The notes under the pieces: generated by a model | Seen by the model: only the letters and a program-made list of their open reading frames with translations | Database searches by the model: none | Told to the model about the DNA's origin: nothing | Shown: piece after piece, positions 641 to 25,153 of the stretch | How positions within the stretch are numbered: position 1 is the first letter of the stretch | Layout of the letters: every line of letters starts with the position of its first letter | Assembly (NCBI GenBank): GCA_025738555.1 | Contig: JAOVFP010000021.1 | Coordinates: 1,860,001 to 1,924,000 of the forward strand | Direction: 5' to 3' | Length of the DNA stretch: 64,000 nt | From: Cyathus striatus | Lineage: Eukaryota; Basidiomycota; Agaricomycetes; Agaricales; Nidulariaceae | Program-made: the position numbers and the translations under genes

Positions 641-1211
641 ATATTTTTCACGTTCCTAAGCGCCACGAACAATACTCACCAAACTCCCGCATCGGATCCA
701 AGTCTGAGATTCGGACGGGAAGGCATCAGAGTCCAGACCACAGCTAACTTGCGCAGTATCGGCTCACACATTGTTTGCACATGTGTACCAAACCCCTCTT
801 CCTCGCTCTCCATCCAATCAAAAACCACCAATAACAAAACAGCGATCAGCCCGCTAGCTCCCACTTCCCCGCTCCTCGCTCCTCGCACCAAGCATCATCA
901 CCACTTGGCTTGACTCAGCTTTACAGTTCTCCACGGCCACGGTATGCAGCGGGCACGAGAACATGATGTGATGATGGATTAGAATAGAAAAAGGTCTACC
1001 TCGATCTCGAATGGACCTAGGATTTCGTTGGGAGGAGGGGACTCGGCCCTGCCAGTGGTGGATGGAACATCTCGGAAGCGTTTCATCCTTTTAGCGGGAA
1101 AGTTTTTCGCGGTGGGGTATACATAAAGTGCGTACTCTTTGGGTGGGTTACCGATCCGCTCACGTTTCTTACCACACCGTTCACCAGACACTCTCCTCCC
1201 GCACGAACAAA
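640..1211. promoter_or_regulatory. Conserved upstream region of protoglobin copy 1
   Basis: This stretch is closely matched by the upstream region of protoglobin copy 2, at 6720-6823 plus 14151-14620 once the transposon there is removed. The best conserved block is about 1000-1110, including the core ggacctaggatttcgttggg and a downstream gcgggaaagttttt. A TATA-like segment lies just before gtgcgtactctttg in both copies. An open frame on the minus strand (about 676-891) is also partly conserved between copies. It has no recognisable domain, and its conservation may only reflect recent duplication. Confidence 0.55.
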
Positions 1212-2096
1212 ATGCAAGAAATAACAGAAGAATCCCTGACCCACCTGCCCACACGCGTATCCTACCTCCGCTCATTTATAAACTTCACCAACGAAGACTC
1301 CGCTGCCCTGCATGCGTCCAAACCCATCCTCGGACCCCTCGTTCCAGCAGTCGTAGACCTGGTCTACACCAAACTCCTCGAATACTCAGTAACAGCCAAA
1401 GCATTCGTACCCCGTCAAACAGGGTACGCTGGGTCCACTCCAGCAGATCTCAAAGACCTGTCTTTGGAACACCCACAAATAGCGTTCAGGAAGGACTTTC
1501 TGAAGGGGTATATCGTGAAATTGGTCAGTATGGATTATGAGGATGAGAAGAGTTGGGAGTATTTGGATAAAGTTGGACGGATGCATACTGGTGTTGAGGA
1601 TTCGGGGTTTAAGCATAGGAGTAAGAGGCCTGGGTTGAGGGTTGAGTATATCCATTGTGGGCTTTTGCTTGGTGTGTTTTTTCTTTTGGTTTTGGTTGAT
1701 GGGGGGTGTTGATGAGGGGTTATGTAGGATTCGTGGAGGATATTATAATCAGCACTGTTATTGCCCACCCGGACTTGGACACCGAAACCAAGTTGGCCGT
1801 TTCGAAAGCAGTAAACAAGGTCCGTCTCCGTCTCCCCTTCCTCTCGTCACCACTAACCCCTGTCCATTGTAGATCCTTTGGATCCAAAATGGTACCCTTC
1901 CCTCCCTCCCCTCCATATATTCCATATTAACGCTTATATAGACCTTTTCGCAAGACACTACATCGAGCAGACCGAACAAGCACAAGCAGCAAAAGAGAAA
2001 ACACGGCCATTCCACTGTAATTCAGCTTTTGGCGCCGCTGTGCCTTTTGTAGCGTGTCTTTTTGGGTTTGCGCTTGCAAGGTTTTGGAAGCATTAA
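1212..2096 (+). CDS. Protoglobin, tail-anchored (copy 1, intact)
   Basis: Predicted haem-binding protoglobin of 241 residues with four exons: 1212-1671, 1728-1819, a 19-nt micro-exon 1873-1891, and 1942-2096. The exon phases close exactly. The micro-exon encodes ILWIQN and joins to DLFARHYIEQ, which restores the usual protoglobin C-terminal helix; reading through either small intron gives stops. The histidine in RMHTGV (about residue 130) lies where globin-coupled sensors carry the proximal haem ligand, followed by FKHRSK and the helix VEYIHCGLLLG. After the globin fold there is a polar linker and a hydrophobic end (AAVPFVACLFGFALARFW), suggesting a C-terminal membrane anchor. The first ATG after the conserved promoter block was chosen as start. 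The function in fungi is not established; gas sensing or NO/O2 chemistry is inference. It is the only intact one of four copies here. Confidence 0.85.
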
Positions 2097-3480
2097 GCGC
2101 TAAGCGCTAAGCATTAGTTGAGTGAAGGTGGATTGTGGTGTGAGATATCGAGATGAATTTCAAGTGGACATTTTTACTTTTAAATGCTTATTGATGGGTC
2201 AACTTCAACTTAATCAGTTCTGTGAGATATCTTTATCTTTGTAGATAAGAATGGTTGTTCGTTCTATTGTCGAAGGGAGGTTGCCCCTAGACCTGACCAG
2301 ACTGATTCTCTTAGGCTAATATGATCTATAAAATGCTTAATGGACATTTATAATCTACGACAAAGTATTTCACCATCAAACCCGACATCACATCGCATTT
2401 CCATTTCACCCTAATTCAACGTACATCCATAAGTACCTCACGGACCAATACCTACTATGCTATCCAAATCTCTACTACAACTTATTAAAGGACCTCGCAC
2501 TCAAATGCCGACATCTCATCATTAAACTGCTGATTCCTCAAATCCATCGAGCCAGGGGGAACAATAGCAATATTGGGTCCCCCACAAGCGAGTAATCGTT
2601 AGCTCCAAATCATTATTACTTATAAGGTTCAAAGCAGAACCAGGACGAACCTGAATATATTACAAAATATCCCATCTGGGACAACGAGACTGCTAACTAC
2701 ATCGTTGAGCTCGGTTGGCAGATTCACGCATACGTCCGTTGTGAATCCTATCTTCTCACATAATCCGGATAGATTTATGTCTGTGCAGAGTTTGACGGTG
2801 CCCGTTTCGTCTGCTGCGTTTGTACCGTTCTGTGCAATATTTAGGTAAGGATATGATGATTTTAAGAAAGGGTTAATGGGCGTACTGCCTGTAATACTTC
2901 TGAGGTAGTAGGCAAGCAGGATATGACTGCCACAGCAGCGAGAACAACGAGAGCTTTGGCGAACATAGTGTACTTGAGTGAAGCTAGTAAGGTGAAGTTC
3001 GAACTATGTAGTCGAGCTGAGGATCCTTGTGTCTCTGAGACACCTTTTATATTCTATAGCATATTAAATGTAGAAATAAAATCAAGTCTATTCAAGAACC
3101 TTTCTCTCTGGCGCCTAAGCGCTTACCCCCGGCCCGTCGCCTGCTTTAGCAAATTCTGATTCTGATCGGCAATTCCAAAATCAAATATGACTCAACATCC
3201 CGCGATTCCCGCCTACGTCGCATGCATCTGACTAGAGTCCTATAACTGTTCGCTGTCTTATTGGTCTTTCTCATAAAGGCACGTTTAACTTCGTCTTCTG
3301 CTAGGGAGTTTATTACTCGATTGTACCGGATTGTTGTTACGGGAATATAAAGCCTCCTATTATGCCTTTCTTCTGTTCCATAACATACATCATGTCGATG
3401 TTATATTGAGAGGTATACTCTCATGACGCGTCATGTATGACGGGGGATTATGTTTTCAATCAAGAGAACATTAGAGTTGT
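1720..3480. repeat. Accessory duplication block, copy 1
   Basis: From protoglobin exon 2 through the convergent secreted-protein gene and its upstream region, this segment recurs as direct repeats at about 15000-17770 and 19540-22400. The 3' part also recurs at about 17880-18960. Shared landmarks are the ggcgctaagcgctaag-like motif after the protoglobin stop, the whole minus-strand secreted gene, and the tail containing ctcaacatcccgc and ggcacgtttaacttc. Divergence between copies ranges from slight to strong, so the duplications are not all the same age. Confidence 0.8.
2485..2966 (-). pseudogene. Small secreted crystallin-like protein, copy A (splice-defective)
   Basis: Exon 1 (2886-2966) encodes a signal peptide starting MFAKALVVLAAVAVISC. 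Exon 2 (2651-2829) encodes the cysteine-rich part, with LCTDINLSGLCEKIG, CVNLP and VPDGIFCNIFR. The third exon's coding text, ending NQQFNDEMSAFECEVL, is present down to 2485. Compared with copies C and E, however, about 20 bp around 2590 are missing, including the 3' acceptor AG and the first codons of exon 3. Reading through intron 2 stops soon after FRFVLVLL. I therefore call it a pseudogene or truncated product. The family pattern (paired cysteines, Greek-key-like G...S spacing) resembles beta/gamma-crystallin folds; this is a weak structural inference. Confidence 0.7.
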
Positions 3481-5350
3481 AAGTGCGGATTTACATGCAA
3501 ATCAGTGAGAAGGCAGGCATAACGGACTCGAGACTTTTTAAATCGAAAGTCTCTTTCTTTACCACTGGTTCAGGGGACAAGGGAGGCTGGGAATCCATAG
3601 ATGCGAATGCAAAAGGGGAGTAACTTGACTCTGGAAGATGATTTGCTGCTTCAACAACAGAGTCAATTGGGAACAGATCGTCAGGATGGTGTGTAAGATC
3701 TTTGACGGTTAGGTAGCGGGTGATGACGAAGCAGGGGAATCAAATGAAGCAGGTCAAAGAGCGAAAGTAGGGGAACCAATGGGTGTTATTTGGAGAGGAA
3801 TAGAAGCTGGGTTAATCGTCGTTTCAGCTGTATGTGCGGCGGTAACAGGAGGCAAAACAGGAGGTGGGATCACAGGTGACGAATCCAGCTTGAGAGATGT
3901 TGATGATTCGCTATCTGACGCGAAAGGAGGATCGATGAATGAAGGAGGAACTGATGCAATCGAAGACCATAAGTGGTATGAGGACGATAGACAACGAGGC
4001 GCGCTTCTTCAGAAAAACTTCACAAAGGAGGTGTAGGAGAGCGTTCGGAGGGACGAGAAGAAGCTAAATGAGCTTCGAGTGCGATAAAATGGGATTTACG
4101 AGATGACAACAGAACAGAAACAAAACCTTAGAAGCCCCTCGCGGTGGGCTCCACTTTGAAGTAGGAAACTTGAGTTTTGAAGGTCCTACGCAAAGAAATG
4201 CGAGTCACTGGCACGTCCGTTCAGTGTTAATGTTCTAAGGTAATGAAACACAATAATCAGCGACGAATACGAATGAAAATAGATGAGAACTTCTAGTTGA
4301 AGCTCTGAGATGAAAAAAAAAAGCGAACTGAGTATAAGTAAGACCAAGGATAAGATAGGAATTGCATAATTATTTCAAGGAGCAGAAACACGAGTCTGTT
4401 TGGAATAGAATGTAGAAAATGAATTAAAGATAAGGAGAGAGAAAATATGTTGAAATGTTGATGAGGTAGTGATTAGATCTAGAGGTGCCACCGTTGAGTG
4501 GTCTCTCGGTTACTTGAGTCAGTGTTATAAACATTCTTGTGGTATTCTTGGTGTTGATAAAATGGCTAGCGTTATGGCAAAGGGGTTGGAGGCAGAGAGC
4601 GTCGGGGAGCGTGTTGAGGTGGCAGAGATGATAACGTAGACACGCTGTTTCAAGGAACAAGTCACGTGACTGTACGCGTTCGCAGAACTTGTCGGACATT
4701 GAAAGTTGTCGAATCATCTGTTCCATAGTGCAGGCCGAACACCTGCTCTACAAGCTTGAAAGCACTATGCATGCTATATACATAATAAATATTTATAACG
4801 ATAATTCTATACATTTTTGATGGTTTTGAATTTGCACCGTACAGTAATATATGTGAACTGTGTGCACGGTACGCACAGTACATCGAGTACCGTTCAGTAC
4901 CGTGCGTACCGTAAAAACTGTCGGCCCGTATCAGTAAAAGTCTGGCTAGAAACATGAGAATATACACGTACCAAAGAACCATATTGCAGAATTGGACATG
5001 TGATCCATTTGTGTAGTATTGGCTTCTAGGGTAACAAATACTGGGTCATATCCCACAGCTTACAGCTTCCTCAACGGTTGTGCAAGCTCCTTAAGGAAGA
5101 ACCATCATGGTAAAGAATAAAATTATATTCTGATAGACATGCGGGAATGATGAACCATGATATATGATATATCATTTGCGGTGATAATAATTAAATAGTG
5201 CCTGTGCCTGCGTGTGAGGAATAGATAACCTGTTTGATATTTCAAGTTCACTCAGGATGCCTTGCTATGAGATTGATGTTACAGAAGAAGGGAGAAGCAC
5301 GCTGAATGACAGGAACTAGGTAAAAGCTACGTGCATAAAAACGCGTTCAG
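3480..5350. other. Intergenic, no supported gene
   Basis: One glycine- and aspartate-rich open frame (3779-4036) has no recognisable domain. A short palindromic cluster lies at 4866-4912, where acggtacgcac pairs with gtgcgtaccgt across a 25-nt loop, among several ggtac/gtacc repeats. Nothing else can be supported. Confidence 0.45.
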
Positions 5351-6817: not shown

Positions 6818-6823
6818 CTAACC
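6818..6823. repeat. Target-site duplication, left (ctaacc)
   Basis: The six bases ctaacc precede the left transposon end and recur at 14145-14150 after the right end. Removing the element and one copy gives gctaacctgcgcag, which matches the empty-site paralogue near 743-758 (gctaacttgcgcag). Confidence 0.85.
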
Positions 6824-7355
6824 TATGGAAAGCCGGACAACCACGCTCAACTAGATCAAAGCAGTTGAATTCCGACATTCGGCAAGATGGCAGTCGCTTA
6901 GATATGTTCTTAGGCACATCTTGTTCGGCCAGAATTTCGGTTAACCGCTTAGTCCAAGCTTCAAGTCCTACTGTATTCAGATGCAAATGTAAGACTTGGT
7001 ATTACAATAGAGTACTATGTGTCGTTACTAATTATTTTGTACATTCACTTAAGTTCAATAGATACAATTGAGAAATAAGATGTTAAAAAAGTGTCTATGT
7101 TGTATAAATCTAGCTTTGAGATGAGACTTGTAACCTGAAAAAACATACAGAGTGCAGTAGCATATGTCTACTGCTATTTTTCTAATGAGTTGTTGGAATA
7201 GGGTTGATCATGTCTGCAAGAATAGTCCACTGAATTTGTGTGTAATAGCTTGATGCGCACAGCAGGAGTTGAACTCGAGATCGAATGCGTGGGAATTTAT
7301 CACGTGATATAAAAGTCACGAGCGTCGTTTCCTCCATGGAAACGACGCTCGTGAC
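6824..7355. repeat. Left terminal inverted repeat (532 bp)
   Basis: It matches the reverse complement of 13608-14144 along its length with only small substitutions and indels. The inner edge is the perfect palindrome at 7315-7355. The outer ~150 bp contain an open frame reading outward that is shared by both TIRs; I regard it as incidental. Confidence 0.9.
7315..7355. repeat. Palindrome at inner edge of left TIR
   Basis: An 18-bp arm gtcacgagcgtcgtttcc and its exact complement surround a 5-nt loop (tccat). The same hairpin with the complementary loop (atgga) closes the right TIR. Just outside it lies another short palindrome, atcacgtgat. Confidence 0.9.
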
Positions 7356-7565
7356 TTACTCAAGTGTTGAGCCAGGTGCATTTCTTACAACACTGGCACA
7401 TTGATTTTCATTCATATTATAAATACATCATTGCTTATGTTCATTTAGAGATTGCATATTTCAATAGGTACTGTAGATTGTTTCAAGTGGTAATAATACC
7501 TATCTACAGAGCTATTCTAATTGAAGTATCTGCAAGTACATATAACCAGCATATCAATTAATTTT

Positions 7566-9507
7566 TCACCAAGTACCATCTCCGTTGATTGAGTCATCCT
7601 CATCTGAAGTGAAATTAACTTCAATTTCTGGAAATTCATGCTCCTCATAAATAACTGGATGGTCTGCATTCATCATAGCATCAAGCTGTGCTGAATGAGA
7701 TTCATCTGGACACAGCAATTTGTCAGAAAGTGAAGTATATATATTGAATACTTTCATTTACCTATTCCCCTCCCATTGTTCACACCACCCATGTAATACA
7801 ATCCCTCTGCTGTAGCATTTTCAATCCCTCCTTCTAACTCTGAAAGGCCAGGTAATAAATCCATGGTATCATGATGATCACGTAGTGAAGTCCTAATAAT
7901 TTCAGTCCAGGTATCCTGAATGCCAGGTGGAATGTCAATTCCTGACTGAATATCATTAAGGATTAACAAGTAGATATCCCAGACATTGTTCCTAGTAATA
8001 ACTGGTGAACCATGCCATGAATATATGTCCTGAGCCAGATTAGAAAATGTTTCTGGTACTAGCTGGAATACAGGATCATTAGGTGGTGAAAACAATGCAC
8101 ATGCTTCCTGAATAGCTTCCATATTGACTGGTATCTTGCATACTGTTAGCATAAGAAATCATTTATAAAAATGATAACTCACCTTGAAATCTAAGACACC
8201 ATATTCATTTGGATTTTCAAAAATGTCATTAGGTATACCATGAGGAAGCACTTTGTTACGATCAGCACGCTTTGCTGTATTGTTAACCCGGTCTTTGTAG
8301 CCATCAAGCTCGCCCTGTAGCCAAGGAATAAATACCCATCGGAATACCATGCTATTGTGATAACTTGTAAGAATAAATATATTTTATATTATAGAAAATT
8401 ACGAACGCTTCAATAGTATGGTCTGGGTGATACAAGTCTTCATTAATGCCCCTGTCAAGGATATCTTCAAATCCAGGAGTGAACCTTCGACGAAGCTGTG
8501 ACCATGTTATCTCAGGTTTAACATTCTTCTTTGATCGCATCCAGCGGTGTTGAAGTGTTCCCTGAAGTGCAGGATCATGAAGGTGATGAAGAAATGTATG
8601 TCCATTGGCAAGTCCAAAATTTTCAGAGCCAGGGTCACTCTGAGTAACCAGAGGCATCACTACATATATTTATTAATAATGGCCAATCTAAACAAAATTT
8701 TAAAAGGCTTACCACCAAGATTCTCAATAGTTTCAAGATAATATGCAAGAATAAGTTTAGGGTTACTATTAGTATGCCAAACCTTCAACCAATGAATCTT
8801 TCCAGCAAATGGGTCAATGCCAGTATGTAAACCCAGACCAAATTTGTATTTCCACTTGTCGTGCTGATCCACTGCAATTATATCATTCACACCAGCAGCC
8901 CACCACCTCTTTCGACGCAGCCTTTGTGCACGCCGCTGCTGAACAAGCTCAGGCTCATAGAGAGCAAAGTATGATGTAACAATTCGCCTGAAATTCATAA
9001 TAGTAAGTGAATGAAAAATTTGACATCAATAACATAAACAGACCTAGAGACTGCCATGTTCTCCTCATGAAATAGCAAACTCACCATCTCACGAGCACCA
9101 GCTTTTGGATACTGAGTTCATAAGCGAATCATTGCTGGCCGGATGCTCTCGACATCATGATTTTGCTTCCGAGTTCGAAAAAGCCCCATTTTCTCATGCA
9201 TTTCAATAAACCTGGTCAAACTATTCATTTAATAAATGTAAGCTTGATATCTAATGTGAATAATAGTGAACACAAAGTTACACAACTTACCCTAATCCAT
9301 AACGAGTATTATCCATGTGCTTCGTCCTCAAGTAATGAAGTATGTTCTTATCAGTGAGGCGCATTTTCCAGTACCTAAGTATGTGTGGGGCGATGTCATC
9401 AATAGGAGCTATGGCATAGAGAAATTAACAATGGTAAAACAATAAGTACACATGAATCCAAACTTACGGTTAGGATTATATTGATTTTTGCGTCCTGTTC
9501 TAGCCAT
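7566..9507 (-). pseudogene. rve-type DDE integrase/transposase of the element (one in-frame TGA)
   Basis: Multi-exon gene starting at the ATG at 9507 (MARTGRKNQYNPN), continuing through IDDIAPHILRYW and MRLTDKNILHYLRTKH, then an HTH-like region with GAREMVSLLFHEENMAVSR. The catalytic core reads WAAGVNDIIAVDQHDKW (first D), TQSDPGSENFGLANGH (second D) and QHRWMRSKKNVKPEITW, with E in KPEI as the probable third acidic residue. It then has the family-typical FTPGFEDILD, VFRWVFIPWLQGELDGY and NKVLPHGIPNDI, and an acidic tail ending INGDGTW. It belongs to the 'integrase core domain' family widespread in Agaricomycetes. One TGA (9118-9120) interrupts IRL-TQYPKAGAREM where arginine is expected, so this copy is probably inactive unless read through. 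Confidence 0.8.
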
Positions 9508-9849
9508 AATTTCGATGTTGGTAATGACAGCAAGTAGTGTATACACGTGAGTGAATGAAGAAACAGTTGATTCAATTTTTTACTGTACCCCAAAGTATTT
9601 ATATTGTCAATCTTCTCTAAAAATACTTTGCAAGGCAGCTGTGCATAGCAAATCTACGTAAAATAAATGTGCTACACATTACATAAAACATAAGCACTTT
9701 ACCAGTCTGTATCTTTACAAATTTAATGATTACTCAGTCTAATAAGCGAAGATCCTACTACCAAGTTCCAATTTCATACTCACACAATGGGAAGTAATTA
9801 GTATTTAATATTAGCCATTGTTTTAGTTTCCTCATGCCTTACCAGGAGT

Positions 9850-10390
9850 CTTTTATCACACTTCATGATAATTACTCTGGCCAACCTGTCAGTATCAAGC
9901 ACATTGTATTACGTTCAGGTAACCACTAGCTAGTAATTATACTAAATCAAAGTAATTGGAGTTGATCATTCTCGGCTCTTGAGAGTCTTAGTATCACAAA
10001 TGACATCACAATCAGTCAAAATCTCTTAATATTTGCTGCATTGCCTTCGACTATACTATTTTTATTTCGCTTCACACTCATTCAAAATATACACAATGAG
10101 CAAAATTTACGTTTGGGTTATTTAACATCTTACCATGCTCAACATCAAGCACATTATATTATGGTCAAGTAACTGCTTGCTTGTAATTATATTGAATAAG
10201 AGTAATCAGAGTTGATCATTCTCGGCTCTTGAGAGTCTTAGTATGGCAAATGACATAAAAATCAGTCAAATCCTTTTAATATTTGTTGCATTGCCTTCCA
10301 CTATACTATCTATATTCCACTTCACAATCATCCAAAACATATGCACTGGGTAAAATTTACGTTTGTTTATTTAATATCTTACCATGCGAC
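9850..10390. repeat. ~250-bp tandem duplication between the divergent transposon genes
   Basis: Two direct copies, offset by 250 bp, each begin near tcaagcacatt (9895 and 10145). They share agttgatcattctcggctc and ttgagagtcttagtat, and end near ttatttaacatcttaccatg. The duplication lies in the shared 5' region of the integrase and kinase genes, so it may duplicate a bidirectional promoter or a transposase-binding region (inference). Confidence 0.85.
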
Positions 10391-10549
10391 ATCACACATG
10401 AGGTATTTGTGAATTGTCATGATTTCAGAACATCTGACTTATGATACGAGACATGATCTCACTAAAAATATAAATACCTTGTGAAATTCATCATATCTTC
10501 TCAGCAGCACCTTTTATCCCACCACTTTCACTCTTTCATTGCTATCAAC

Positions 10550-13368
10550 ATGAACTTTGGTAATGCTGAAGCTATTGCTAAATTCACTGAAGATACACAT
10601 GCAAGCGAACCCATCCCATGTGGTAGAAGCAGCTGCTCAATCATTCTCCAGCCTGGTGACAGCAAGCACTATATTGCAGGTGGTACTCGCGGTAAATTTG
10701 TTTGTGATGGGTGCTTTGAATATTATGCAAAGAAACCAGATACACTTCTGAGTAAGTCTGAATTATTATTAGTATATGATGAAAATTTTCTCACACCAGA
10801 TAGGGCCTGATGTTGCAAGTCGCTTATCCAGTACAAATCGACAACTACCCACGGACTCCATCATAAGTATGTCTTTTATATTTTCATTTAACAATAATAT
10901 ACTAATATACTTGGTGTTTAGGCCCTGCAATTGCAGATCAGCTCAGTTCTGAAATTTCTGGGCAGAATTCAGTGGCTTTATGATCCAGTACTGTTGATGT
11001 ACAGTCTATCAGAGCTTCTGTAAACCAGGCTCAAAGAAAAGGTATGTAATTAAATATTTTAACCATGATGTTTTTTGATATTTTGTTTAGATTCCAGTTT
11101 CCTTGCATGAAAGGTTACACATCTTCCAAATAGCCTTCCCTCAGCAGTACTGCAGCGATGGTCACATACACCTGATTCTACTCGTCAACTGCCAGCTGTG
11201 GGAATACCAAGTTCATGGTCAGCAAATGGTGGAAGCTATGCAGTGTCTCAACAAATTACTTCCTCAGGGTACTCTGGTTCACATTCACTCTATAAGACAG
11301 AGTGGGACAAGTACCAGCAATTTAGTTACCAGGGACACCAATTTGAAACAATTAGCATTATAGTTCAGGCAGTCCGTGAGATTTCTGGTAAAACTAGGCC
11401 TGAGTTGATTTCGGTTTGTAACTAAATTATATTTTACTGTGAACACTATTGCTAATATACTTTGAATAGAATCTACAAGAAGGCCACCAGAATATCCCAG
11501 CCATGATTACACCTCGGGACTTAATCAAATTGGTAGAGGATACAATGCTACCTCAACTTTGGAAGGCGATGCATTGGTTTCCATTTCAAACCAAGTCACT
11601 TACCATTCGTGAGCTTTGTAATTGGACAGATCTTGCACACATGCAACAAGACCAGCCATATTTCTATAATCGCTGTCTTGGACAAGGATGAGGCAAAGAC
11701 AAGAAGAATGTATTCAAGATACCTTCAAAGCCATTTATATTAGGGCTTGTTGTTCCAGCATATTTGTGGGAAGAAAGCTTGGACTATGTCGCTGCTCAGG
11801 AGGTAGGAAGCACTACTAGTTTGTTTATATTCAAGCTAATCTTATATTGCTTTTATTTAGGATGTTAAAGTATGTCTATTTGTATAGACAAGTTCTATTA
11901 ATGCTGACATGCATTTCCTAGTTGCAAAATGAGTCCAATGATTTCGGTATATCTGACCAATTTGATTCCATGGTCAATGTAGACTCTGGTAGTACTCTGA
12001 ACAATGCAAAAACCAGTCATTCAACTAGCTTGAATGGCAACACTGCAGCTATTACGACACCAAAGAAGTCATTTGATTCAAAGAAACGAACTCGTACAGT
12101 ATGTATACTCATTAATTATGTATGCAGCAGCACATCTAAACTTATTCCTAGAATACACTAAGCTCCTTGGAGTTATCACCAACATCTGCTCCATTAAAGA
12201 AGCATATACACACTTCAATTCCATATAAATCTCCAGATAGACTTAAGATCCATGAAGCATTAAAAGTTGGTGGACTATCAGCTAATATACAAGCTAATTC
12301 TGGTAAGCAGTTTATTCACATAATAACTATGCATACAAAATCACTAACACTCATATAAGCAAAATACAGAGTGGAGCAAATCCAGTTTTATACAATTCCT
12401 GAGATCAGTCTGGCAGAGCTTCTTGCTGAAAATACCAAAAAGTCCTTCTCTTTAATGGACCCATGTCCTGGTACACTAACCATCAATCATCTTGAGTCTA
12501 TTGGTATTGGAGCTTGTAAAACTGCACATAAAGGGCTCCTTACACTCACTCCAATAGCGGAATCTGGCCTTGGAGATACATTAAACCAGCCTGTTGCTGT
12601 AAAGCGAGTTTACTTTCGGGATGATAGAAAAAGTACAAGAAATAGCTCTTCTCAGACAGGACTATCAATTGGATGGTTTGCAATTGATTCAGAGCTGACA
12701 AAGACACTAGTCGAGGCCAATGTTACCTACTGGGCAGCATCTCTACTGTCTTATTCATATTCATACATCTCACAGGTGATATCAACCAAAGGAGAGCCTC
12801 CTTTCAAAATCCCTGAGATACGCTTTGTGAAGGCTGGTGTTGGCATTGTTCATGACACTGCTGGTAGTAAGCCTGGTGGAAAGTCAGCAACGATGCACAA
12901 TGTCTACTTGCTAGAAGAGTTCATTGAGAATGAAGGAAATGACTTCATAAAATTCATTCACAATGGTTCTGCTCGTCCTCTTCTAGATGGAAGTGATCCA
13001 CTTTATGCCATCGCAGAATTTCTCTGTTTCATGCAGCATATTCAGTATGAAAAAACTGATTCCTTGGTATATGTATCAGATCTACAAGGTGTGCAGTTTT
13101 ACCATTTTATTTTGAGTGTTCTTATATAATTTTTTATAATACAGGGAGTGCCACACTTTTATCTGACCCACAAATAATGACCGCACCGTGAGTTTATTTT
13201 TCAGCTACTCAAAGAGATAGAGTAACATTTCAATTAAGATCACTTGAAGATGATGCCGCCCTGTTTGGCCAGGGGAATGTGGGTTCTGCATTCAATAATT
13301 TTGCATCTGAGCATATTTGCAACAATTACTGTGAATGGTTTAACTTAACAACTCTCAATACAGCATAA
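10550..13368 (+). pseudogene. Alpha-type (atypical) protein kinase carried by the transposon (three in-frame TGA)
   Basis: The N-terminal exon (10550-10751) has a putative zinc-binding pattern, CGRSSCS ... GKFVCDGCFEYYAKKPDT. Later exons cover a low-complexity linker, then the C-terminal alpha-kinase domain from about 12380. This has VAVKRVYFRD (probable catalytic lysine), LLEEFIENEGNDFIKFIHNG, AEFLCFMQHIQYEKT, LVYVSDLQG joined by splicing to SATLLSDPQIMT, then LFGQGNVGSAFNNF and EHICNNYCEWF. The last parts match the Gly-rich loop and zinc-binding CxxxC of alpha-kinases (MHCK/eEF2K class). Exons end at 10751, 10866, 11041 and onward with consistent phases. In-frame TGA codons lie at 10981-10983, 11108-11110 and 11689-11691, all upstream of the kinase domain, which is itself open. 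It is AT-rich relative to neighbouring host genes. Confidence 0.8.
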
Positions 13369-13552
13369 AAATCTAGTGCCTTGCATGCTGTTACAAATTT
13401 GGAGTCATGTTAAGGATCTGTATGACCTTTTTATATGAGCTTGTAGGTACTTTGATTAGAATCACTCCATAAATAGGTCAATTATCTACTACTATGTTTG
13501 AAACAATCTATAGTACCTTCAGTGAATTGTGCAATTTCTAAACAATGCATTA

Positions 13553-13600
13553 CTGAATGATAATATTAATGGAGACGGTACTTGGTGAAAAATTAATTGT
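13553..13600 (+). pseudogene. Relic of an integrase 3' end beside the right TIR
   Basis: The plus strand reads DNINGDGTW-stop followed by aaaaattaattgt. This nearly matches the integrase tail (DDSINGDGTW-stop, aaaaattaattg) that lies inverted at 7556-7600. On the right it directly abuts the TIR hairpin; on the left about 200 bp intervene. The right end therefore seems to have been copied from, or recombined with, an integrase-bearing end. Confidence 0.75.
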
Positions 13601-13607
13601 TATAAAG

Positions 13608-14144
13608 GTCACGAGCGTCGTTTCCATGGAGGAAACGACGCTCGTGACTTTTATATCACGTGATAAATTCCCACGCATTCGATCTCGAGTTCAACTCCTG
13701 CTGTGCGCATCAAGCTATTACACACAAATTCAGTGGACTATTCTTGCAGACATGATCAACCCTATTCCAACAACTCATTAGAAAAATAGCAGTAGACATA
13801 TGCTACTGCACTCTGTATGTTTTTTCAGGTTACAAGTCTCATCTCAAAGCTAGATTTATACAACATAGACACTTTTTTAACATCTTATTTCTCAATTGTA
13901 TCTATTGAACTTAAGTGAATGTACAAAATAATTAGTAACGACACATGCTATAGTACTCTATTGTAATACCAAGTCTTACATTTGCATCCAAATACAGTAG
14001 GACTTGAAGCTTGGACTAAGCGGTTAACCGAAATTCTGGCCGAACAAGATGTGCCTAAGAACATATCTAAGCGACTGCCGTCTTGCCGAATGTCGGAGTT
14101 CAACTGCTTTGATCTAGTTGAGCGTGGTTGTCCGGCTTTCCATA
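13608..14144. repeat. Right terminal inverted repeat (537 bp)
   Basis: Inverted counterpart of 6824-7355. It begins with the 41-bp palindrome at 13608-13648 and ends CCGGCTTTCCATA, followed by the ctaacc target duplication at 14145-14150. Confidence 0.9.
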
Positions 14145-14150
14145 CTAACC

Positions 14151-14620
14151 TGCGCAGTATCGGCTCACTCGCTATTTGCACATATGTACCAAATCCCTCT
14201 TCAACACCTTCTATCCAATCGGGAATCGCCAATAACAAAAAGACAATCAAGGCGCTACTCCCGCTTGTGGCTTCCCCACTCCTCGCACAATGCTTCATCA
14301 CCACTTGGCTTGACTCACGGCTGAGCCTTACGGATTGCTACGGCGTACAACGGGCACGAGGACATGATTTACAAAGCATGCTTGATGATGCAGATGGATT
14401 AGAATAGAAGCCAAGGTCTACCCCGATCTCGAGTGGACCTAGGATTTCGTTGGGAGGAAGGGGGGAAGATCTCGGACGTGTTTCATCCTTTTAGCGGGAA
14501 AGTTTTTTGCGGGGTATTAGGAAGAGTATAAAGTGCGTACTCTTTGCCTGCTTACCGTTCTGCTCACTTTTCTTACCACACCATTCACCTGTGGTGAGCT
14601 CCCCTCCCCAAACGAACGCA
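14151..14620. promoter_or_regulatory. Promoter region of protoglobin copy 2, displaced by the transposon
   Basis: This is the proximal half of the region conserved with 745-1211, including ggacctaggatttcgttggg and a TATA-like gagtataaagtgcgtact just before the start. The distal half is now at 6720-6823, 7.3 kb away. Confidence 0.65.
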
Positions 14621-15404
14621 ATGCAAGAAATAACAGAAGAATCCCTAACCCACCTGCCCACACGCGTATCCTACCTCCGCTCATTCATAAACTTCTCAAA
14701 CGAAGACTCCGCCGCCCTCCACGCGTCCAAACCCATCCTCGGACCCCTCGTACCAGCCGTCGTAGACTTAGTCTACACAAAATTCCTCGAATACTCAATG
14801 GCAGCCAAAGCATTCGTACCCCGTCAAACAGGGCATGCCGGCTCCATTCCAGCAGATCTCAAAGACCTGTCCTTGGAACATCCACAAATTGCGTTCAGGA
14901 AGGACTTTTTGAAGGGATAAGCCTAGGTTGAGGGTTGAGTATATCCATTGTGGGATTTTTCTTGGTGTATTTTTTCTTTTGGTTTTGGTTGATGGGGGTG
15001 TTGATAAGGGGTTGTATATGATTCGTGGAGGATATCATAATCAGCACTGTTATCGCCCACCCGGACTTGGACACTGAAACCAAGTTGGCTGCGTTGAAAG
15101 CAGTAAACAAGGTCCGTCTCCGTCTCCCCTTTTCGTCACCGCTAACCCCTCTCCGTCATAGATCCTATGGATCCAAAATGGTACCCCTCCCTCCCTCCCC
15201 CCCATATACTCCATATTAACACTTATATAGACCTCTTCGCAAGACACCACATCGAACAAACCGAACAAGCACAAGCAGCAAAAGAAAAAGCTCGGCCATT
15301 CCACTGTAATCCAGCATTTGGCGCCGCTGTGCCTTTCGTAGCGTGTCTTATTGGGTTTGCGCTTGCACGTTTTGGAAGCATTAACTGCAGTGCGAGCGTT
15401 GGTT
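14621..15404 (+). pseudogene. Protoglobin copy 2 (internal deletion, dead)
   Basis: The first ~100 codons are open and close to copy 1 (MQEITEESLTHLPTRVSYL ... FRKDFLKG). About 120 bp equivalent to 1510-1628 of copy 1 are then missing. The loss creates a frameshift (GISLG-stop) and removes the segment with the predicted proximal haem histidine (RMHTG) and FKHRSK. The acceptor of intron 1 is also lost (tatatgattcg instead of tatgtag-gattcg), and a 1-nt change before the stop shifts the C-terminus. Exons equivalent to 2-4 remain recognisable to about 15404. Confidence 0.85.
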
Positions 15405-16868
15405 GAGCTCGTTATAGGGGATTTTAGGTGCTTAGCGCTGAGTGATAGGTGCAGGTGGCTGGGTCTGTACGAGTGTATGAGATGAATTTAAGTGAAGTGC
15501 GCTGTGCGGGTTTGAGTTTTTCTCTCTCTATTTATTGATGGTTTATGTATACTATATACCTCTCTTCCTACTCTAGTAAAGAACTTGGGAAATGATACAT
15601 TGACTCGACTCACTGACACGCTCCAGTCGATCCCGTATGACTCTCTGAGAGTCCTGCGAGGTATTAGTGTTCTGGTTGTTATTTTTGTCGTCGAGGGGAG
15701 GGTTTACATTTGAACATTTGACGTTTAGAGAAGGAGTTGGATTAAGTAGATAAACTTCCTGGAATATGTCGACTGGAGCTTTGGAGTAGATTCACGACTT
15801 TATTAATCAGTCTTAAGTACTTAGTACTTTCGCTGAAGGTATTGATTTAAGGTCAACTCGCTATTATGAAATACATACTACAGGGCCTTTCATCGGACAT
15901 TCAACGAGAATATTACGGACTGCCTTGAAGGTCAAGTACTGAAGCTTAACTTAAATCCTGGGAGCAGTGAGTCGACTGTTCGAAAGTGCATTTACGTCTT
16001 TCCGATTTTCTCGCAGGCATGGAAGTTATTATTAGCTGAACTAGAGGATTCCGAAGAAAGAGCGTGTATAGTGCGTTGATGGAACAGCAGGTAGAATTGA
16101 GGGCTCCTCAGTGCAACGACGGAGGAGAACCGTGGTACGAGGTTTACACACGGTTAATTTACATTGAACCATGTGGGAGAAACATATACTTACCATATTT
16201 ATCGTGTCTTAGAGGTACAGCAGATGGAGCGCTTGGAATAACTTGAGTTGTTTCGGACTGTAGGGCACTTTCGTACAGCATACACTCCGTAATTATGAAT
16301 ACGGAAGATTGAACCATGAATACTTCAACGATTCAACGTTAGTAATGGTATCTGGAACTTGGCTCAGCAGGTTAGGCTTGTAATAGCCACCAGAGATCAT
16401 GACTAGAATTTAAACGTATAGGAGTCTAGAATCGATACCTCTGTTTGTCGTCCGCAGTATTGTCAGGAGTTCTCCGACGAGCATGGACGAGCACGGGAAA
16501 GAGATGTATTACAGGTAACAGTAAGGAATGTGATATGAGAATACTAAGTAACGCATATTTGAATAATAACCGGCCTGTTCCCTCATCATCATGATTGTGC
16601 AGATATTCTACAATTTTGTTCGCAGTGGCGATGAGGATAAAACTAATGTTGAACAATTAACAGTTGACTTGACGTGGATTATACACCAGACTTTAAATCT
16701 CGCTGTTGGCCGCCTTCCGATGCGTGAAATGTTTAGTGTACGTGCTATCTATAGCCTTTATGACAATCATATCCAATTCGAAACACCACATTCAATTTCA
16801 GCCCAATCAACATACATCCGTAAACACCTCCATACCTACTATACTATCTAAACTCTTACTACAACTTA
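15405..16868. other. Intergenic within duplicated region, no supported gene
   Basis: Contains decayed sequence between protoglobin copy 2 and secreted-protein copy C. The only open frames are short and featureless. From about 16780 the 3' flank of the copy-C gene (catacatccgtaaacacctc-like) begins. Confidence 0.45.
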
Positions 16869-17356
16869 TTAACGGTCCGCGCACTCAAACGATGACATCT
16901 CATCATTAAATTGTTGATTATCCAAATCCATCGAGCCAGGGGCAAGGATAACAACACTGGGTCCCCCGCAATTGATATCTCTGACGTAATATAATCGTTA
17001 GCTCCAAGTCTTTAGAGATTAGAACCTGAACGAACCTGAATATATTGCAAACGATCCCATCTGGGACAGTGAGGCTACTGATTTCATCGTTGAGTGCGGA
17101 TGGCACATTCGCGCAAAAGCCTGTGGTGAATCCTACGTTCGCACACGACCCAGATAGATTTGCATCCACGCAGAGTTTGACGGTGCCGGTATCTTCTGCT
17201 GCGTTTGTACCATTCTGTGCGATATATACGTGAGGATATGATGACTATGGAAGGGCGGGTAAACGGTCGTACTGCTTTTAATACTTGGGTGCCAGTAGTA
17301 GGCAAGCAAGATACGGTGGCCACAGCAGCGAGAACAACGAGAGCTTTGGCGAACAT
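16869..17356 (-). CDS. Small secreted crystallin-like protein, copy C (intact)
   Basis: Three exons on the minus strand (17273-17356, 17036-17214, 16869-16980) give 124 residues with consistent phases. Signal peptide: MFAKALVVLAAVATVSC. Mature segments: KLCVDANLSGSC, GFCANVPSALNDEISSL, VPDGIVCNIFR, DINCGGPSVVILAPG, and NNQQFNDEMSSFEC-type spacing (here DNQQFNDEMSSFEC), ending ADR. The spacing of cysteines and glycines, repeated twice, suggests two Greek-key motifs as in microbial beta/gamma-crystallins. Function is unknown; it is presumably extracellular. It sits convergent to protoglobin copy 2, as copy A does to copy 1. Confidence 0.8.
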
Positions 17357-18081
17357 AGTATACTTGAGTGAAGCTAGTGAGGTGAAGCTAAAACTGTGTA
17401 GTCGAGCTGAGGGTTTCTAAACATTAGGAATCCCTTTTATACTCAAATGGATGCATGCATGCCGGAATAAAAGGAACAAGTTTATTCAAGCACAAGTCTA
17501 AGCTCTAACATTCTTTCTCTCCCCGTCGCCTGCTTCGGCGGATTCCGATCAGCAATTCCAAATATAACTCAACATCCCGCCTATGTCGCATGTATCTGAC
17601 TGGGGTCCAAAAACTATTCGCTGTCTTATTGGTCTCTCACAAAGGCACATTGAACTTCACCTTCTGCTAGGGAGTTTATAACTTTCTTCTATTCCATATC
17701 ATACATTGATGTCATACTGAGAGCTATACTCTCATGACGGGGATCAGTTTTCCAGACATGCAGTAGATCTATTACCAGTATCCTCCACATCATAAAGGCG
17801 GAGATAGATACTACAAGTTTGTTACAGTTGAAGAGAGATTATTAGCGTTGGATAAGGAAAAATTGCGGGTTTACACACGAATCATGAAACATTGCTGATG
17901 TCTAACCTATTCTCTTCACCTAAAGTGATCCATGAAATGCTTACTGGACATCATTATAGGATGTTTATGATGACTATATCATAATGAAACCCAACACCAT
18001 ATCCTATTTAACCGCTATCAACATACATCTGTTACTCTATACTATCCAAATTCTTACTACTACAACTTATTCAAGGAAGGA

Positions 18082-18532
18082 CTAGCACGAAAATACCAAA
18101 ATCTCATCATAAAACTTCTCCATCCTCAAATCATCCGATCCAGGAAGGAAGATATCAATATTGGTTCCGACACAATTCAAATCCCTGAGTTAAAATAATC
18201 ATTAACTCCAAGCTTGGACGAATCTGAATACGTCGCAAAAGAACGCAGCTGGGACACTGATACCGGTAACTTGATAATTAATGCTCGTTGGCACATTCAC
18301 ACATGAGTCCGTGGTGAAATTAGTATATTCTCGCATGTTCGGGTTAGTAAAGTTAGACCTGTGCAGAGTTTGTATCATTCTGTGCAGTATATATGTGAGA
18401 ATGTGGAAGGAGTGATAAAAAGGGGGGTAAAAGAGCGTAGTGCCTTTAATACTATGTTGGTAGTAGGTAAGCCAAAGGTAAGCAAGACACAGCAGCCACA
18501 TCAGCGAAGACAATCAGAGCTTTGGCGAACAT
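18082..18532 (-). pseudogene. Small secreted crystallin-like protein, copy D (frameshifted)
   Basis: Exon 1 starts MFAKALIVFADVAAVSC. In exon 2 the first cysteine block is frameshifted. One frame reads LCTGLTLLTRTCENI; the next carries TTDSCVNVPTSINYQVTGI and FFCDVFR. Exon 3 is recognisable as DLNCVGTNIDIFLPGSDDL and ends early at FSC. More diverged than A, C and E, so an older duplicate. Confidence 0.7.
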
Positions 18533-19376
18533 TGTGTGCTTAAGTACAGTTAGTGAGTAGCCGAGTTGAGGTTTGCTGGATATAGAGACCTCTTTTACAC
18601 CCCAGGAGACGCATACATATCGGAATAAAATCAACAAGTCCATTCAAGCACAAGCCTGGCTTCCTTTCCTTCCGGTGCTTTCCTTCGGCCCGCTATGGCT
18701 ACTTCCGACTTCGGCAGGATTCCGATCAAGAGTTCCAAATAGGTATGTATAACTCAACATCCCACCAACATCGCACCGCGCACCCGACCGAAGTCCCAAA
18801 TCTGTTTGCTATTCTACTATCAGTCTCTTACGAAGGCACACAGAACTTCATCTTCTGTTAGGTAATTTATTACTTCAATATCTAGACTGTGGTTTGTAGG
18901 ATACTAGAATAGGCATGGTTTGCTTGTTATAGGATCTACATCTTTATGCCCAGTTAAAAGTCGGTCTAACAATTTCGAGCGGTGTCGAGCGAGAAATAGT
19001 GTCTAGATTTTTCTCGAGTGGCATCTAGCGAAATACCTCTAATCCTGTATCCTTCAAGTTCTACTTCCTCTTTGTATGCAACACTCCCCATGAAGGCATT
19101 TGGACTTGGAAGTCATGGGCCTACTACTATTTTGAAGGTATGTTCCTTAGTGTTACAGTGATACTATAAAAATCGTTTCTTTTATTATTCTACACTACTT
19201 TGTCCGATATACAGTTTCTTACATCATTTAGATTTATTGGTTTTTCTAGTATATAAATCCCTGTAATGTAACTACAAATGATGGAATAAAGTTATATTCC
19301 CTATCTAAACTCAGAATCACTGTTTATCATCTCGAAACTGTTTTAATCATCAAATCACGCTCATTTCGTTACTTTC

Positions 19377-19508
19377 TCATCAGAACTTCATTTTGAAGTG
19401 CTTCATCACTCGTTACTTCCTCATCAGAACTTCATTTTGAAGTGCTTCATCACCCGTTATTTTCTCATCAGAACTTCATTTTGAAGTGCTTCTTCACTCG
19501 TTATGTTC
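19377..19508. repeat. Three tandem 44-bp repeats
   Basis: The unit starts tcatcagaacttcatttt and recurs at 19377, 19421 and 19465 with few substitutions, plus a partial unit upstream. It lies directly before the fragmentary protoglobin copy 3 and may mark the duplication breakpoint. Confidence 0.9.
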
Positions 19509-19539
19509 TCAGATCACAATATCTTTCACTAGTTTCGTT

Positions 19540-19915
19540 ATGTAAGATTCGTGGAGGATATTATAATCAGCACTGTTATCGCCCACTCGGATTTGGACAC
19601 CGAAACCAAATTAGCGGTATCGAAAGCAGTAAACAAGGTCCGTTGCCCTCTCCCTTTCCTTACCCCACCACTAACCCCCTTATCGTAGATCCTATGGATC
19701 CAAAATGGTACTCCCTCTCCCCTTCCCTCCATATATTCCACACTAACGCTTATATAGACCTCTTCGCAAGACACTATATCGAGCAAACTGAACAAGCACA
19801 AGCAGCGAAAGAATAAATTCGGCCATTCCACTGTAATCCAGCATTTGGCGCCGCTGTCCCCTTCGTAGCGTGCCTTTTTGGGTTTGCGCTTGCAAGGTTT
19901 TGGAAGCATTAGGCG
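19540..19915 (+). pseudogene. Protoglobin copy 3 (exons 2-4 only)
   Basis: Starts in the exon 2 equivalent (FVEDIIISTVIAHSDLDTETK) with no exon 1 upstream, then the ILWIQN micro-exon equivalent and DLFARHYIEQTEQAQAAKE, where a stop (gaataa) interrupts. Downstream sequence continues to match copy 1, including the gcgctaagcgctaagc motif after the original stop. A 5'-truncated duplicate. Confidence 0.85.
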
Positions 19916-20412
19916 CTAAGCGCTAAGCATTAGTTGAGTGAAGGTAGATTGTGGTATGAGATATCGAGATGAATTTCAAGTGGACGTTTTTACTTTTAAA
20001 TGTTTATTGATGGTTTTGTGACGATGATCATGATTAGCATATGTTACTCTATACCTTCCTTCATATTGTACGGAAACACGGAAATAATACTTTTATTCCC
20101 GCCTCTGTCGACTTGGATGTTGTAAAATTCTTGGGATAGCAGCGGTCAACTCCAACTTGATTAGTTCTGTGAGATATCATTATCTATGTAGAAGAGAATG
20201 GTTGTTCATTTTATTGTCGAAGGGAGGTTGCTCCTAGACCTGACCAGACTGGTTCTCTTGGGCTGGTGCAATCTATGAAATGCCTAATGGACATTTACAA
20301 TCTATGACAAAGTATTTCACCATCAAGCCCGACACCACATCGCATTTCAACATACATCCATAAGTACCTCACGGGCCAATACCTGCTATGCTATCCAAAC
20401 CCCTACTACAAC

Positions 20413-21854
20413 TTATTGGAGGGCCGAGCACTCAAACGCCGACATCTCATCATTAAACTGCTGATTCCTCAAATCCATCTCGCCAGGGGTAACAATAGCA
20501 ACATTAGGTCCCCCACAACCCAAATCTCTGACATCAAGTAAGCAATCGTTAGCTCCAAATCATTATTACTTATAAGGTTCAAAGCAGAACCAGGATGAAC
20601 CTGAATATATTACAAAATATCCCATCTGGGACAGTGAGACTATGTTATGATATATGATTCTCTGTTAGTTATGTTTGCCTTCGTATCCCTCACTCCCTCA
20701 CTTAGTATAGTATACTACTACTCTACTATGTATATGCCTCTACTTTTTACTTATTCTATGCATTATGTTGAATGGGTTGTCGCCGTTGTGAGGAAAAGGA
20801 ACAAGGTGCCTGCGGCCTGTGAAGGGGGGAATGCAAACTACAGTCTAACCAGACATGCAGCAGTGGTGATAGTGCCTAGCGAGGCATACATAGTTGTCGG
20901 CCAGAGGTAATGACGAGCGAGCCATGCCTGGTGTGGGCATGGGGAAGAGGAAGCCTTGACTCAGGCCAGTGCGAGGGTAATAATATAATGGATTAAAGAC
21001 AAAGAGCACAATGTATGATACAATGAGCTATCTACATAGGGATATTTGTATGTGTTATAATCCAAAGGGTCCACAAAGTCTGTTCACTTCAACACATTAC
21101 TGGAACTATCTTGCATATACATGAATCATATTGAAGTCTGGCAATGGTAGTAGAATGATCTAGATACACTACACGAGGCTACTTAGTACTCTGTATAAAT
21201 ACTCGATTAACTCACTGTAAATATCATCCTTTTTGCCAACAATATTTCAAACCTTCGTATTGAGACTACTAAGTCTAAATCAACATATAGAATAAACACA
21301 GATCTGCTCTGTTTATTCTATAAGACGGCTATAAGACGTTACTGACTCGCTCTAATGCTTATTGAGGGAAAGATCACCTGACCTTTCCTCTAGCGGTTAA
21401 CACAGTTAAACCACGTTGACTTAGGGAATCTTAACGCGCTCTAGACTAAACTAAATGAACACTCACCCTACCCAACACCCCTTCAATAACAGATTCAATC
21501 ATTATATTAAAGGTGAGTAGCCATACACTAACATTTATATTCAAGGGAATACACCAACAATTATAGTTCTTCATGAACCATAACAGACTACTAACTTGAT
21601 CGGTTGGCAGATCCATGCATACGTCTGTTGTGAGTCCTATGTTCTCACATAATCCGGATAGATTTATGTCTGTGCAGAGATTGACAGTGCACATTTTGTC
21701 TGCTGTGTTTGTACTATTCTGTGCAATATTTATGTAAGGATATGATGATTTTAAGAAAGGGTTAATGGGCATACTGCCTGTAATACTTCTGAGGTAGTAG
21801 GCAAACAGGATATGACTGCCACAGCAGCGAGAACAATGAGAGCTTTGGCGACAT
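20413..21854 (-). pseudogene. Small secreted crystallin-like protein, copy E (split by LTR)
   Basis: Exon 1 has lost one base after the ATG (atgtcgcc instead of atgttcgcc), shifting the signal peptide out of frame. Exon 2 (LCTDINLSGLCENIGLTTD, CMDLPT) is interrupted by the LTR-like insertion at 20643-21585. The rest of exon 2 and all of exon 3 (DLGCGGPNVAIVTPG, NQQFNDEMSAFEC) continue beyond it down to 20413. Confidence 0.85.
20643..21585. mobile_element. Solo-LTR-like insertion (943 bp)
   Basis: It begins TGTTATG and ends CATAACA, with the 5-bp duplication gacta on each side (20638-20642 and 21586-21590). TG...CA inverted ends with a 5-bp target duplication are the signature of an LTR. There is no retrotransposon coding sequence, so a solo LTR is the simplest reading. 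It contains a 13-bp-arm palindrome (tatagaataaaca / tgtttattctata) at 21286-21322. Confidence 0.75.
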
Positions 21855-22399
21855 AGTGTACTTGAGTGAAACTAGTAAGGTGAAGCTCGAGCTGAGGCTC
21901 CTTGTGTCTCTGAGACACCTTTTATATTCTATAGCATATTATATGTGGAAATAAAAATCAAGTCTATTCAAGCACCTTTCTCTCTGGCGCTTAAGTGCTT
22001 AAGCGCTTACCCCCGGCCCGTTGCCTGCTTTAGCAAATTCTGATTCTGATCAGCAATTCCAAAATCAAATATAACTCAACATCCTGCGATTCGCGCCTCC
22101 ATCACATGCATCTGACTGGAGTCCTATAACTGTTCGTTGTCTTATTTGTCCCCCTCACAAAGGCACGTTTAACTTCATCTTCTGCTAGGGAGTTTATTAC
22201 TCGATTGTACCGGATTGTTGTTACGGGAATATGAAGCTTTCTATTGCGCCTTTCTTCTGTTCCACAACATACAGTATATTGATGTTATATTGAGAGGTAT
22301 ACTCTCATGACGCGTCATGCATGACAGGGATTAGGTTTTCAGTCGAGAGAACATTAGGGTTGTAAGTGCGGATTTACACGTGAATCATGAACTTCATGA

Positions 22400-25081: not shown

Positions 25082-25153
25082 AGTCCCGAAGGTGGTTCGA
25101 ACACCTGACCCTGGGATCTGCAATCCCATGCTCTACCACTGAGCTATCGAGAC
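25082..25153 (-). tRNA. tRNA-Cys (GCA), intronless
   Basis: The minus strand folds into a cloverleaf. Acceptor arms GTCTCGA and TCGGGAC pair (with one G-T). The D-arm has AGCTCAGTGGTAGAGC. The anticodon stem TGGGA/TCCCA encloses the loop TTGCAGA with anticodon GCA. The T-arm carries GGTTCGAACC-type pairing (GTGTTCGAACCAC). The discriminator is U and no intron is present. Confidence 0.93.

What the first reader, a model, noticed from the sequence alone, without database searches (positions are those of the whole stretch)
6824..14144. Transposon pairing an rve integrase with an alpha-kinase between ~530-bp TIRs
Sequence shows a precisely bounded element with 532/537-bp inverted repeats and a 6-bp target duplication, encoding a DDE integrase and, divergently, an alpha-type protein kinase with an N-terminal Cys cluster. 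The kinase is a signalling enzyme, not a usual transposition protein. Its place as the only partner gene suggests that it either serves the element (for example by modifying host factors) or is cargo. It would also offer a mechanism for the multiplication of alpha-kinase genes in mushroom genomes. I know of no named superfamily with this gene content, but cannot rule one out.
Basis: partly seen in the sequence, partly recalled or inferred. Interest (0 to 1): 0.88.

Follow-up and report, generated by a model that had tools for sequence, protein, structure and literature searches.

The report
Mushroom jumping gene carrying a kinase
This is a cut-and-paste jumping gene of a mushroom-type fungus that carries, besides its own integrase, a protein-kinase gene that has travelled and evolved with it; such elements already have a name (IS3EU) and the kinase was mentioned in rust fungi, but here it looks like a maintained working part rather than chance cargo.

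Summary
Window 6824-14144 is a transposon with 532/537-bp terminal inverted repeats, 6-bp target duplication CTAACC, a DDE integrase (minus strand) and a divergent alpha-kinase (plus strand). A paralogous sequence at 653-1235 of the same window is a natural empty site.

The kinase does not look like accidental cargo. In the host genome 17 of 18 listed integrase loci of this family and 22 of 27 of more distant families have a divergent alpha-kinase within 10 kb (one of the 22 is doubtful), against 1 of 23 control integrase loci. Four of nine other-family loci read show the same kind of ends with 6-bp duplications. Two of them differ by 1 substitution in 7183 sites at different targets. Between families, kinase and integrase show similar purifying selection (dN/dS 0.13-0.21 and 0.11-0.20). 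The window copy itself is broken. What the kinase phosphorylates is unknown; I think it licenses transposition or counters silencing.

The parts
6818..6823 (.). left target-site duplication CTAACC
   Evidence: read; identical hexamer at 14145-14150; single copy (CTAACT) in the paralogous empty site
6824..7355 (+). left terminal inverted repeat, 532 bp, begins TATGGAAAGCCGG
7313..7357 (.). 20-bp perfect palindrome (5-bp loop) at the inner end of the left TIR
   Evidence: I6
7566..9507 (-). integrase/transposase gene, 8 exons (514 aa in copy L012); window copy has 1 premature stop
   Evidence: gene model; PF24764 E 4.1e-10 (L012 protein); state
9508..10549 (.). AT-rich intergenic region between the divergent genes, presumably a bidirectional promoter (inference)
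9889..10365 (+). two direct copies of a 227-bp repeat (84% alike, spacing 250) in the intergenic region; cross-matches of the same repeat show in many family copies
10550..13368 (+). alpha-kinase gene, 11 exons (759 aa in L012): N-terminal Cys cluster, middle domain that looks ubiquitin-like in the model of a relative, C-terminal alpha-kinase domain; window copy has 3 premature stops
   Evidence: gene model; PF02816 E 2.3e-14 (L012 protein); TRPM7 1ia9 E 1.3e-6; state
12360..13368 (+). exons that hold the alpha-kinase domain (DLQG, SDPQ, GN-V-G and H-x-C-x3-C motifs)
13598..13658 (.). palindrome at the inner end of the right TIR
   Evidence: I4
13608..14144 (-). right terminal inverted repeat, 537 bp, ends GGCTTTCCATA
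14145..14150 (.). right target-site duplication CTAACC
653..1235 (+). paralogous insertion-free sequence (natural empty site), 72% identical across the junction

Best explanation
A decayed member of a two-gene cut-and-paste DNA transposon family of the IS3EU superfamily. SHOWN: the ends, 6-bp duplications, repeated copies, empty site, gene content, conserved pairing and purifying selection between families. INFERRED: the integrase binds the long TIRs and inserts them with a 6-bp stagger by DDE chemistry; the two genes are fired from the shared intergenic region; the alpha-kinase (Cys cluster, ubiquitin-like domain, kinase) is a transposon-encoded helper that phosphorylates either the transposase complex or a host silencing/repair protein and so raises the element's success. 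Host methylation-type decay (CpG to TpG/CpA) then kills most copies, as it seems to have killed this one.
For: Ends and TSDs. Empty site. IS3EU hallmarks TAYGG..CCRTA, TIR over 30 bp, 6-bp TSD, alpha-kinase opposite the transposase: passages of PMC12730594 and PMC10045372. Pairing: 17 of 18 and 22 of 27, all divergent, within 10 kb, against 1 of 23 control loci, chance 1.6% (one of the 22, C2:3378335, lies beside a window-family element and may not be its own pair). Other families with ends and TSD: L033 GGGGAG, L034 CATTCG, L035 CGTTGT, L038 CATCTC, i.e. 4 of the 9 other-family loci fetched. L034/L035: 1 substitution in 7183 sites (99.86% counting gaps); in L034 both genes are open (513 and 771 aa). 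Selection: kinase 0.13-0.21, integrase 0.11-0.20 for nine between-family pairs. Co-divergence r 0.82 over 64 of 66 pairs. Catalytic and zinc motifs kept. CpG decay.
Against: No transposase of a Repbase IS3EU family was available, so superfamily placement rests on ends, TSD, gene content and integrase type, not on a tree. Five of 27 more distant integrase loci, and 1 of 18 of this family, have no listed kinase within 10 kb. 47 of 85 kinase loci have no listed integrase within 10 kb (many are fragments; nine adjoin the inner stretch of a deletion-derivative subfamily; 11 are PF02816 loci that the transposon kinase does not find). 5 of 9 other-family loci fetched showed no element ends. The mechanism of the kinase is untested. 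Within families dN/dS is mostly higher (0.13-0.96), with few changes. Styx, called IS3EU-related, has no kinase among its four genes (PMC10853768 passages), so the kinase is not universal.
Confidence: 0.85

Rival explanations
1. The kinase is passenger cargo: captured once, carried because it lies between the ends, without a role in transposition.
For: Deletion derivatives with the family's TIRs keep only parts of it; most family copies have broken kinases; Styx, an IS3EU relative, lacks it.
Against: Pairing persists across families only 43-75% alike in the kinase to this one, with dN/dS as low as the integrase's between families, and in the youngest family the kinase of the copy modelled is open. 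Idle cargo should decay faster than the transposase.
Confidence: 0.15
2. A host alpha-kinase gene and a transposase happen to sit between long inverted repeats in one place.
For: The window alone could be read so.
Against: 21 family elements read with matching sequence, 12 of the 17 two-ended ones with exact 6-bp duplications, plus other families; empty site.
Confidence: 0.01
3. The element belongs to another rve-integrase group: Polinton/Maverick (6-bp TSD, long TIRs) or Ginger.
For: Long TIRs and 6-bp TSD suit Polinton; a retroviral-like integrase suits both.
Against: 7.3 kb with two recognised genes only; ends TA..TA; TSD 6, not the 4-5 given for Ginger1/2 in PMC10045372; the Pfam scan shows no zinc-binding integrase N-domain, which speaks against Ginger1 but not against Polinton.
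Confidence: 0.04

Closest known systems
IS3EU (Repbase superfamily; TET-bearing IS3EU families, Kojima 2025, PMC12730594)
   Same: 6-bp TSD, TIR over 30 bp, TAYGG..CCRTA ends, DDE transposase and alpha-kinase genes in opposite orientation
   Different: Host is an agaricomycete (inferred from its nearest relatives, e.g. Cyathus 89%; the passages name rusts and Tuber for TET-bearing IS3EU); no TET/JBP gene recognised between the genes; TIRs of hundreds of bp
GingerRoot (grouped with IS3EU in PMC10045372, passages)
   Same: 6-bp TSD and mostly TA..TA ends
   Different: Described from a clubmoss; no kinase mentioned in that paper ('kinase' 0 occurrences)
Styx of Zymoseptoria (PMC10853768, passages)
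   Same: IS3EU-type transposase, 7927 bp consensus, 6-bp TSD (example CATAAG), several genes
   Different: Partner genes are GATA-motif, CCHC and DUF3577 proteins, no alpha-kinase
Alpha-kinase family (TRPM7, MHCK A, eEF2K)
   Same: C-terminal catalytic domain with DLQG, DP, GN-x-G and zinc H-x-C-x3-C motifs
   Different: N-terminal Cys cluster and a middle domain; transposon-borne lineage whose protein does not find 11 other PF02816 loci of this genome

Membership tests
IS3EU | 6-bp target-site duplication | tested here: met
   12 of 17 two-ended family elements exact (window, the rest); L033, L034, L035, L038 of other families
IS3EU | ends TAYGG..CCRTA (TA..TA), TIR longer than 30 bp | tested here: met
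   TATGG...CCATA, TIR 532/537 bp; other families 301-865 bp
IS3EU | DDE/rve transposase without an HHCC zinc N-domain | tested here: met
   PF24764 is the only family over its cut-off; D209 and E250 in all 42 aligned homologs, D149 in at least 90%; Foldseek E 4.8e-5 to 8rdu_R, 4.8e-4 to TnsB 8aa5, low TM-scores. Absence of HHCC rests on the Pfam scan
IS3EU | transposase groups with Repbase IS3EU transposases in a tree | not testable with these tools
   Repbase not held
IS3EU that carry TET/JBP | alpha-kinase gene opposite to the transposase | tested here: met
IS3EU that carry TET/JBP | TET/JBP gene between transposase and kinase | tested here: inconclusive
   only short ORFs at 9508-10549 (not scanned); PF12851 rang nowhere in the genome, but not in the controls either
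Polinton/Maverick | large element (over 10 kb) with DNA polymerase B and capsid genes (recalled) | tested here: not met
   7.3 kb, two recognised genes
Ginger1/Ginger2 | 4-5 bp TSD | tested here: not met
   6 bp; Ginger values from PMC10045372
Alpha-kinase (PF02816) | score over the curated cut-off with catalytic and zinc motifs | tested here: met
   54.3 bits against 21.3; motifs in the alignment to TRPM7 1ia9; which residues are catalytic is recalled

The most novel reading that the evidence does not exclude
In this lineage the basic gene set of a DNA transposon is a transposase plus a protein kinase: transposition, or escape from silencing, is controlled by phosphorylation from an element-encoded kinase with a ubiquitin-like recruiting domain, and much of the reported expansion of alpha-kinase genes in rust and mushroom genomes is this transposon gene rather than host signalling.
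Probability: 0.4. Interest if true: 0.8.

Novelty: new member of a known kind. Interest (0 to 1): 0.5.

Why it matters
Rust genomes are said to have a highly expanded alpha-kinase family (PMC4469406, one passage; a table row with PF02816 in the wheat-rust paper PMC5295586). If those genes, like 24 of the 35 PF02816 matches here, belong to IS3EU elements, they should be masked rather than read as signalling innovations. The find also gives a system in which to ask why a transposon keeps a protein kinase, with young and open copies in the same genome.

Tried and rejected
Pairing of the kinase with the stronger PF24764 integrase loci of the same genome (23 clusters taken from the 60 matches; four weak single places left out): 1 of 23 has a kinase-like fragment within 10 kb (42% alike, E 1.8e-6, C17:2079567), so PF24764 integrases as such do not carry the kinase. 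The lists behind one search are capped: one search scored 84 of 183 candidates and did not print all matches, 84 of 188, 73 of 119, 126 of 126, 52 of 52, 150 of 217.

A PDB search with the integrase profile found nothing. Paper searches with no hit. Searches behind 'already in print' and 'no mushroom report seen'; open-licence PMC papers only.

Protein search with the whole kinase found only Cyathus, the tool drawing its words from the first 500 residues; the region search found 9.

L032, L036, L037, L039 and L040 (5 of 9 other-family loci fetched) are integrase-kinase pairs in which I found no element ends: probably damaged or older copies, or ends outside the piece fetched.

Dropped before counts: in the TSD count 4 of 21 elements lacking one or both ends (L020, L023, L026, L029); among the 17, L016 has 5 of 6 bases, L018 4 of 6, L017, L019 and L027 none. 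In the TIR searches only 40 of 250 and 40 of 213 first-look candidates were scored, so copy numbers are lower bounds. Two of 66 protein pairs with 60 or fewer shared columns were left out of the correlation. projects gene models taken from L012, so L012 fits by construction as to splice sites; that its frames are open is.
Full report
Observation. The element is real and precisely bounded. Arms of 195 bp (98%) and 339 bp (100%) make TIRs of 532 and 537 bp. CTAACC flanks both ends. The window also holds a natural empty site: a paralogous stretch (653-1235) aligns straight through the junction of the two flanks at 72% over 621 columns, with one copy of the target. The element sits upstream of a protoglobin-like gene (PF11563 E 2.6e-13 in 14495-14920) whose neighbourhood is repeated at 744-3504 and 18471-22507; only the one copy was tested against Pfam.

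Copies. The window lies in a 107-Mb genome (G000, 24 contigs). A TIR search gave 58 matches with 40 of 250 candidates scored; I fetched 20 further elements. Of 21 elements, window included, 17 have both ends, and 12 of those have exact 6-bp duplications, all different (window). Every outer end read begins TATGGAAAG. One of the 21 (L012) has both genes without stops or frameshifts. By the gene models of L012 the window copy has one premature stop in the integrase and three in the kinase. Differences from the window element are mostly transitions, and a large share of them at CpG (e.g. 58 of 80 against L010; 55 of 99 against L012); the interior of the window element has CpG observed/expected 0.35 against 0.87 in the flanks, which fits methylation-driven decay (inference).

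Genes. The integrase has 8 exons and 514 aa (PF24764 rva_4, E 4.1e-10), the kinase 11 exons and 759 aa (PF02816, E 2.3e-14) in L012. Over 42 homologs D209 and E250 of the integrase are in every sequence and D149 in at least 90%; that these are the catalytic residues is my inference from the rve pattern. Its model (mean pLDDT 77.9) matches a chain of the type V-K CRISPR-transposon assembly at E 4.8e-5 and TnsB (8aa5) at 4.8e-4, retroviral integrases more weakly, with low TM-scores. The kinase aligns to TRPM7 (E 1.3e-6) through the DLQG, DP, GN and H-x-C-x3-C motifs. Its N-terminal Cys cluster is seen in 5 of 9 relatives aligned. A confident middle domain (residues about 190-326 of the relative P0125) resembles ubiquitin-like folds at a middling level.

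Known kind. PMC12730594 (abstract, outline and passages seen; [quoted passage not shown] The window element meets these, but no TET gene was recognised. So I file it as a new family of IS3EU; the pairing itself is already in print, in a short remark on TET-bearing families. The open-licence papers searched showed me no report of it from mushrooms and no analysis of the kinase.

Is the kinase a working part? (a) Pairing. I clustered by hand integrase matches and kinase matches. 17 of 18 window-family and 22 of 27 other integrase loci have a kinase within 10 kb, all divergent; one of the 22 lies next to a window-family element and may not be its own pair. Control: 1 of 23 stronger PF24764 loci; chance 1.6%. 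The lists are capped, so these are samples. (b) Of nine other-family loci fetched, four are complete elements with the same kind of ends and 6-bp duplications: L033, L034, L035, L038. (c) L034 and L035 differ by 1 substitution in 7183 aligned sites (99.86% counting gaps) but sit at different targets, hence very recent movement with the kinase aboard; both genes are open in L034. (d) Between families, dN/dS of the long kinase exon is 0.13-0.21 and of the integrase 0.11-0.20 over nine pairs (dS is near saturation in several, so values are rough). Within families B, E and F the ratios are 0.30, 0.59 and 0.31 for the kinase and 0.96, 0.53 and 0.13 for the integrase. (e) Identity of the two proteins co-varies (r 0.82, 64 of 66 pairs, not independent).

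Against. Five of 27 other-family loci and one of 18 window-family loci (L020, disrupted, one end only) lack a nearby kinase. Three internally deleted copies with the TIRs lack the integrase and much of the kinase (L018, L027, L028); the inner 432-bp stretch of L028 has 20 long matches in the genome, its own included, nine of the loci adjoining kinase fragments. No two-ended copy that I read keeps the integrase while cleanly lacking the kinase. 47 of 85 kinase loci have no listed integrase within 10 kb. Styx, an IS3EU relative, has other partner genes, so the kinase belongs to a lineage, not to all IS3EU.

Mechanism. Shown: insertion with 6-bp duplication, repeated mobility, coupled inheritance and constraint. 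Inferred: DDE cut-and-paste; divergent transcription from 9508-10549; kinase acting in trans. I give about 0.8 that the kinase serves the element; between its own transpososome and a host silencing or repair factor I cannot choose. PMC12730594 proposes that the TET gene some families hold in the same element helps escape from methylation silencing, which makes an anti-silencing role for the kinase a fair guess.

Alpha-kinase multiplication. Of 35 PF02816 matches in this genome, 24 coincide in position with loci of the transposon kinase lineage (13 window-family, 5 close derivatives, 6 other families) and 11 do not. The reported expansion of alpha-kinases in rusts (passages) should be re-examined in this light.

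Verdict: a sound observation, an already named kind of element, with a better supported case here that the kinase is a kept component.

Noticed in passing
window 744-3504, 14145-17993, 18471-22507: Three related tandem stretches (a protoglobin-like gene, PF11563, in 14495-14920); the transposon sits upstream of the second..
   Followed up: partly
window 6824-7355 and 13608-14144: The TIR keeps CpG (observed/expected 1.0 in its first 531 bases) while the interior is depleted (0.35): methylation may spare the ends, or they are selected or converted.
   Followed up: no
window 7313-7357 and 13598-13658: A CpG-rich near-perfect palindrome closes each TIR; a piece of its motif (TCACGAGCG) also shows near one end of the family D element (L038).
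   Followed up: no
L027 flanks (C9:2518542-2521488): The flanks are inverted copies of each other (AAGTGCTTCAG / CTGAAGCACT) instead of a direct duplication.
   Followed up: no
G000, 20 long matches: A deletion-derivative subfamily with its own 432-bp inner stretch and often the 3' part of the kinase; only L027 and L028 were read.
   Followed up: partly
G000:C17:2079567-2088007: A kinase-like fragment lies divergently 7.6 kb from a strong PF24764 integrase: possible further lineage of the same pairing.
   Followed up: no
TSDs of the window, L013, L015, L025: Four of 12 exact duplications of the family begin CTAA, a hint of target preference.
   Followed up: no
window 58421-62289: Open frames with AMP-binding, phosphopantetheine and (at the cut-off) hexapeptide-repeat domains, perhaps one adenylating enzyme gene and a neighbour.
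   Followed up: no
window 25082-25153: tRNA gene on the minus strand (Rfam).
   Followed up: no
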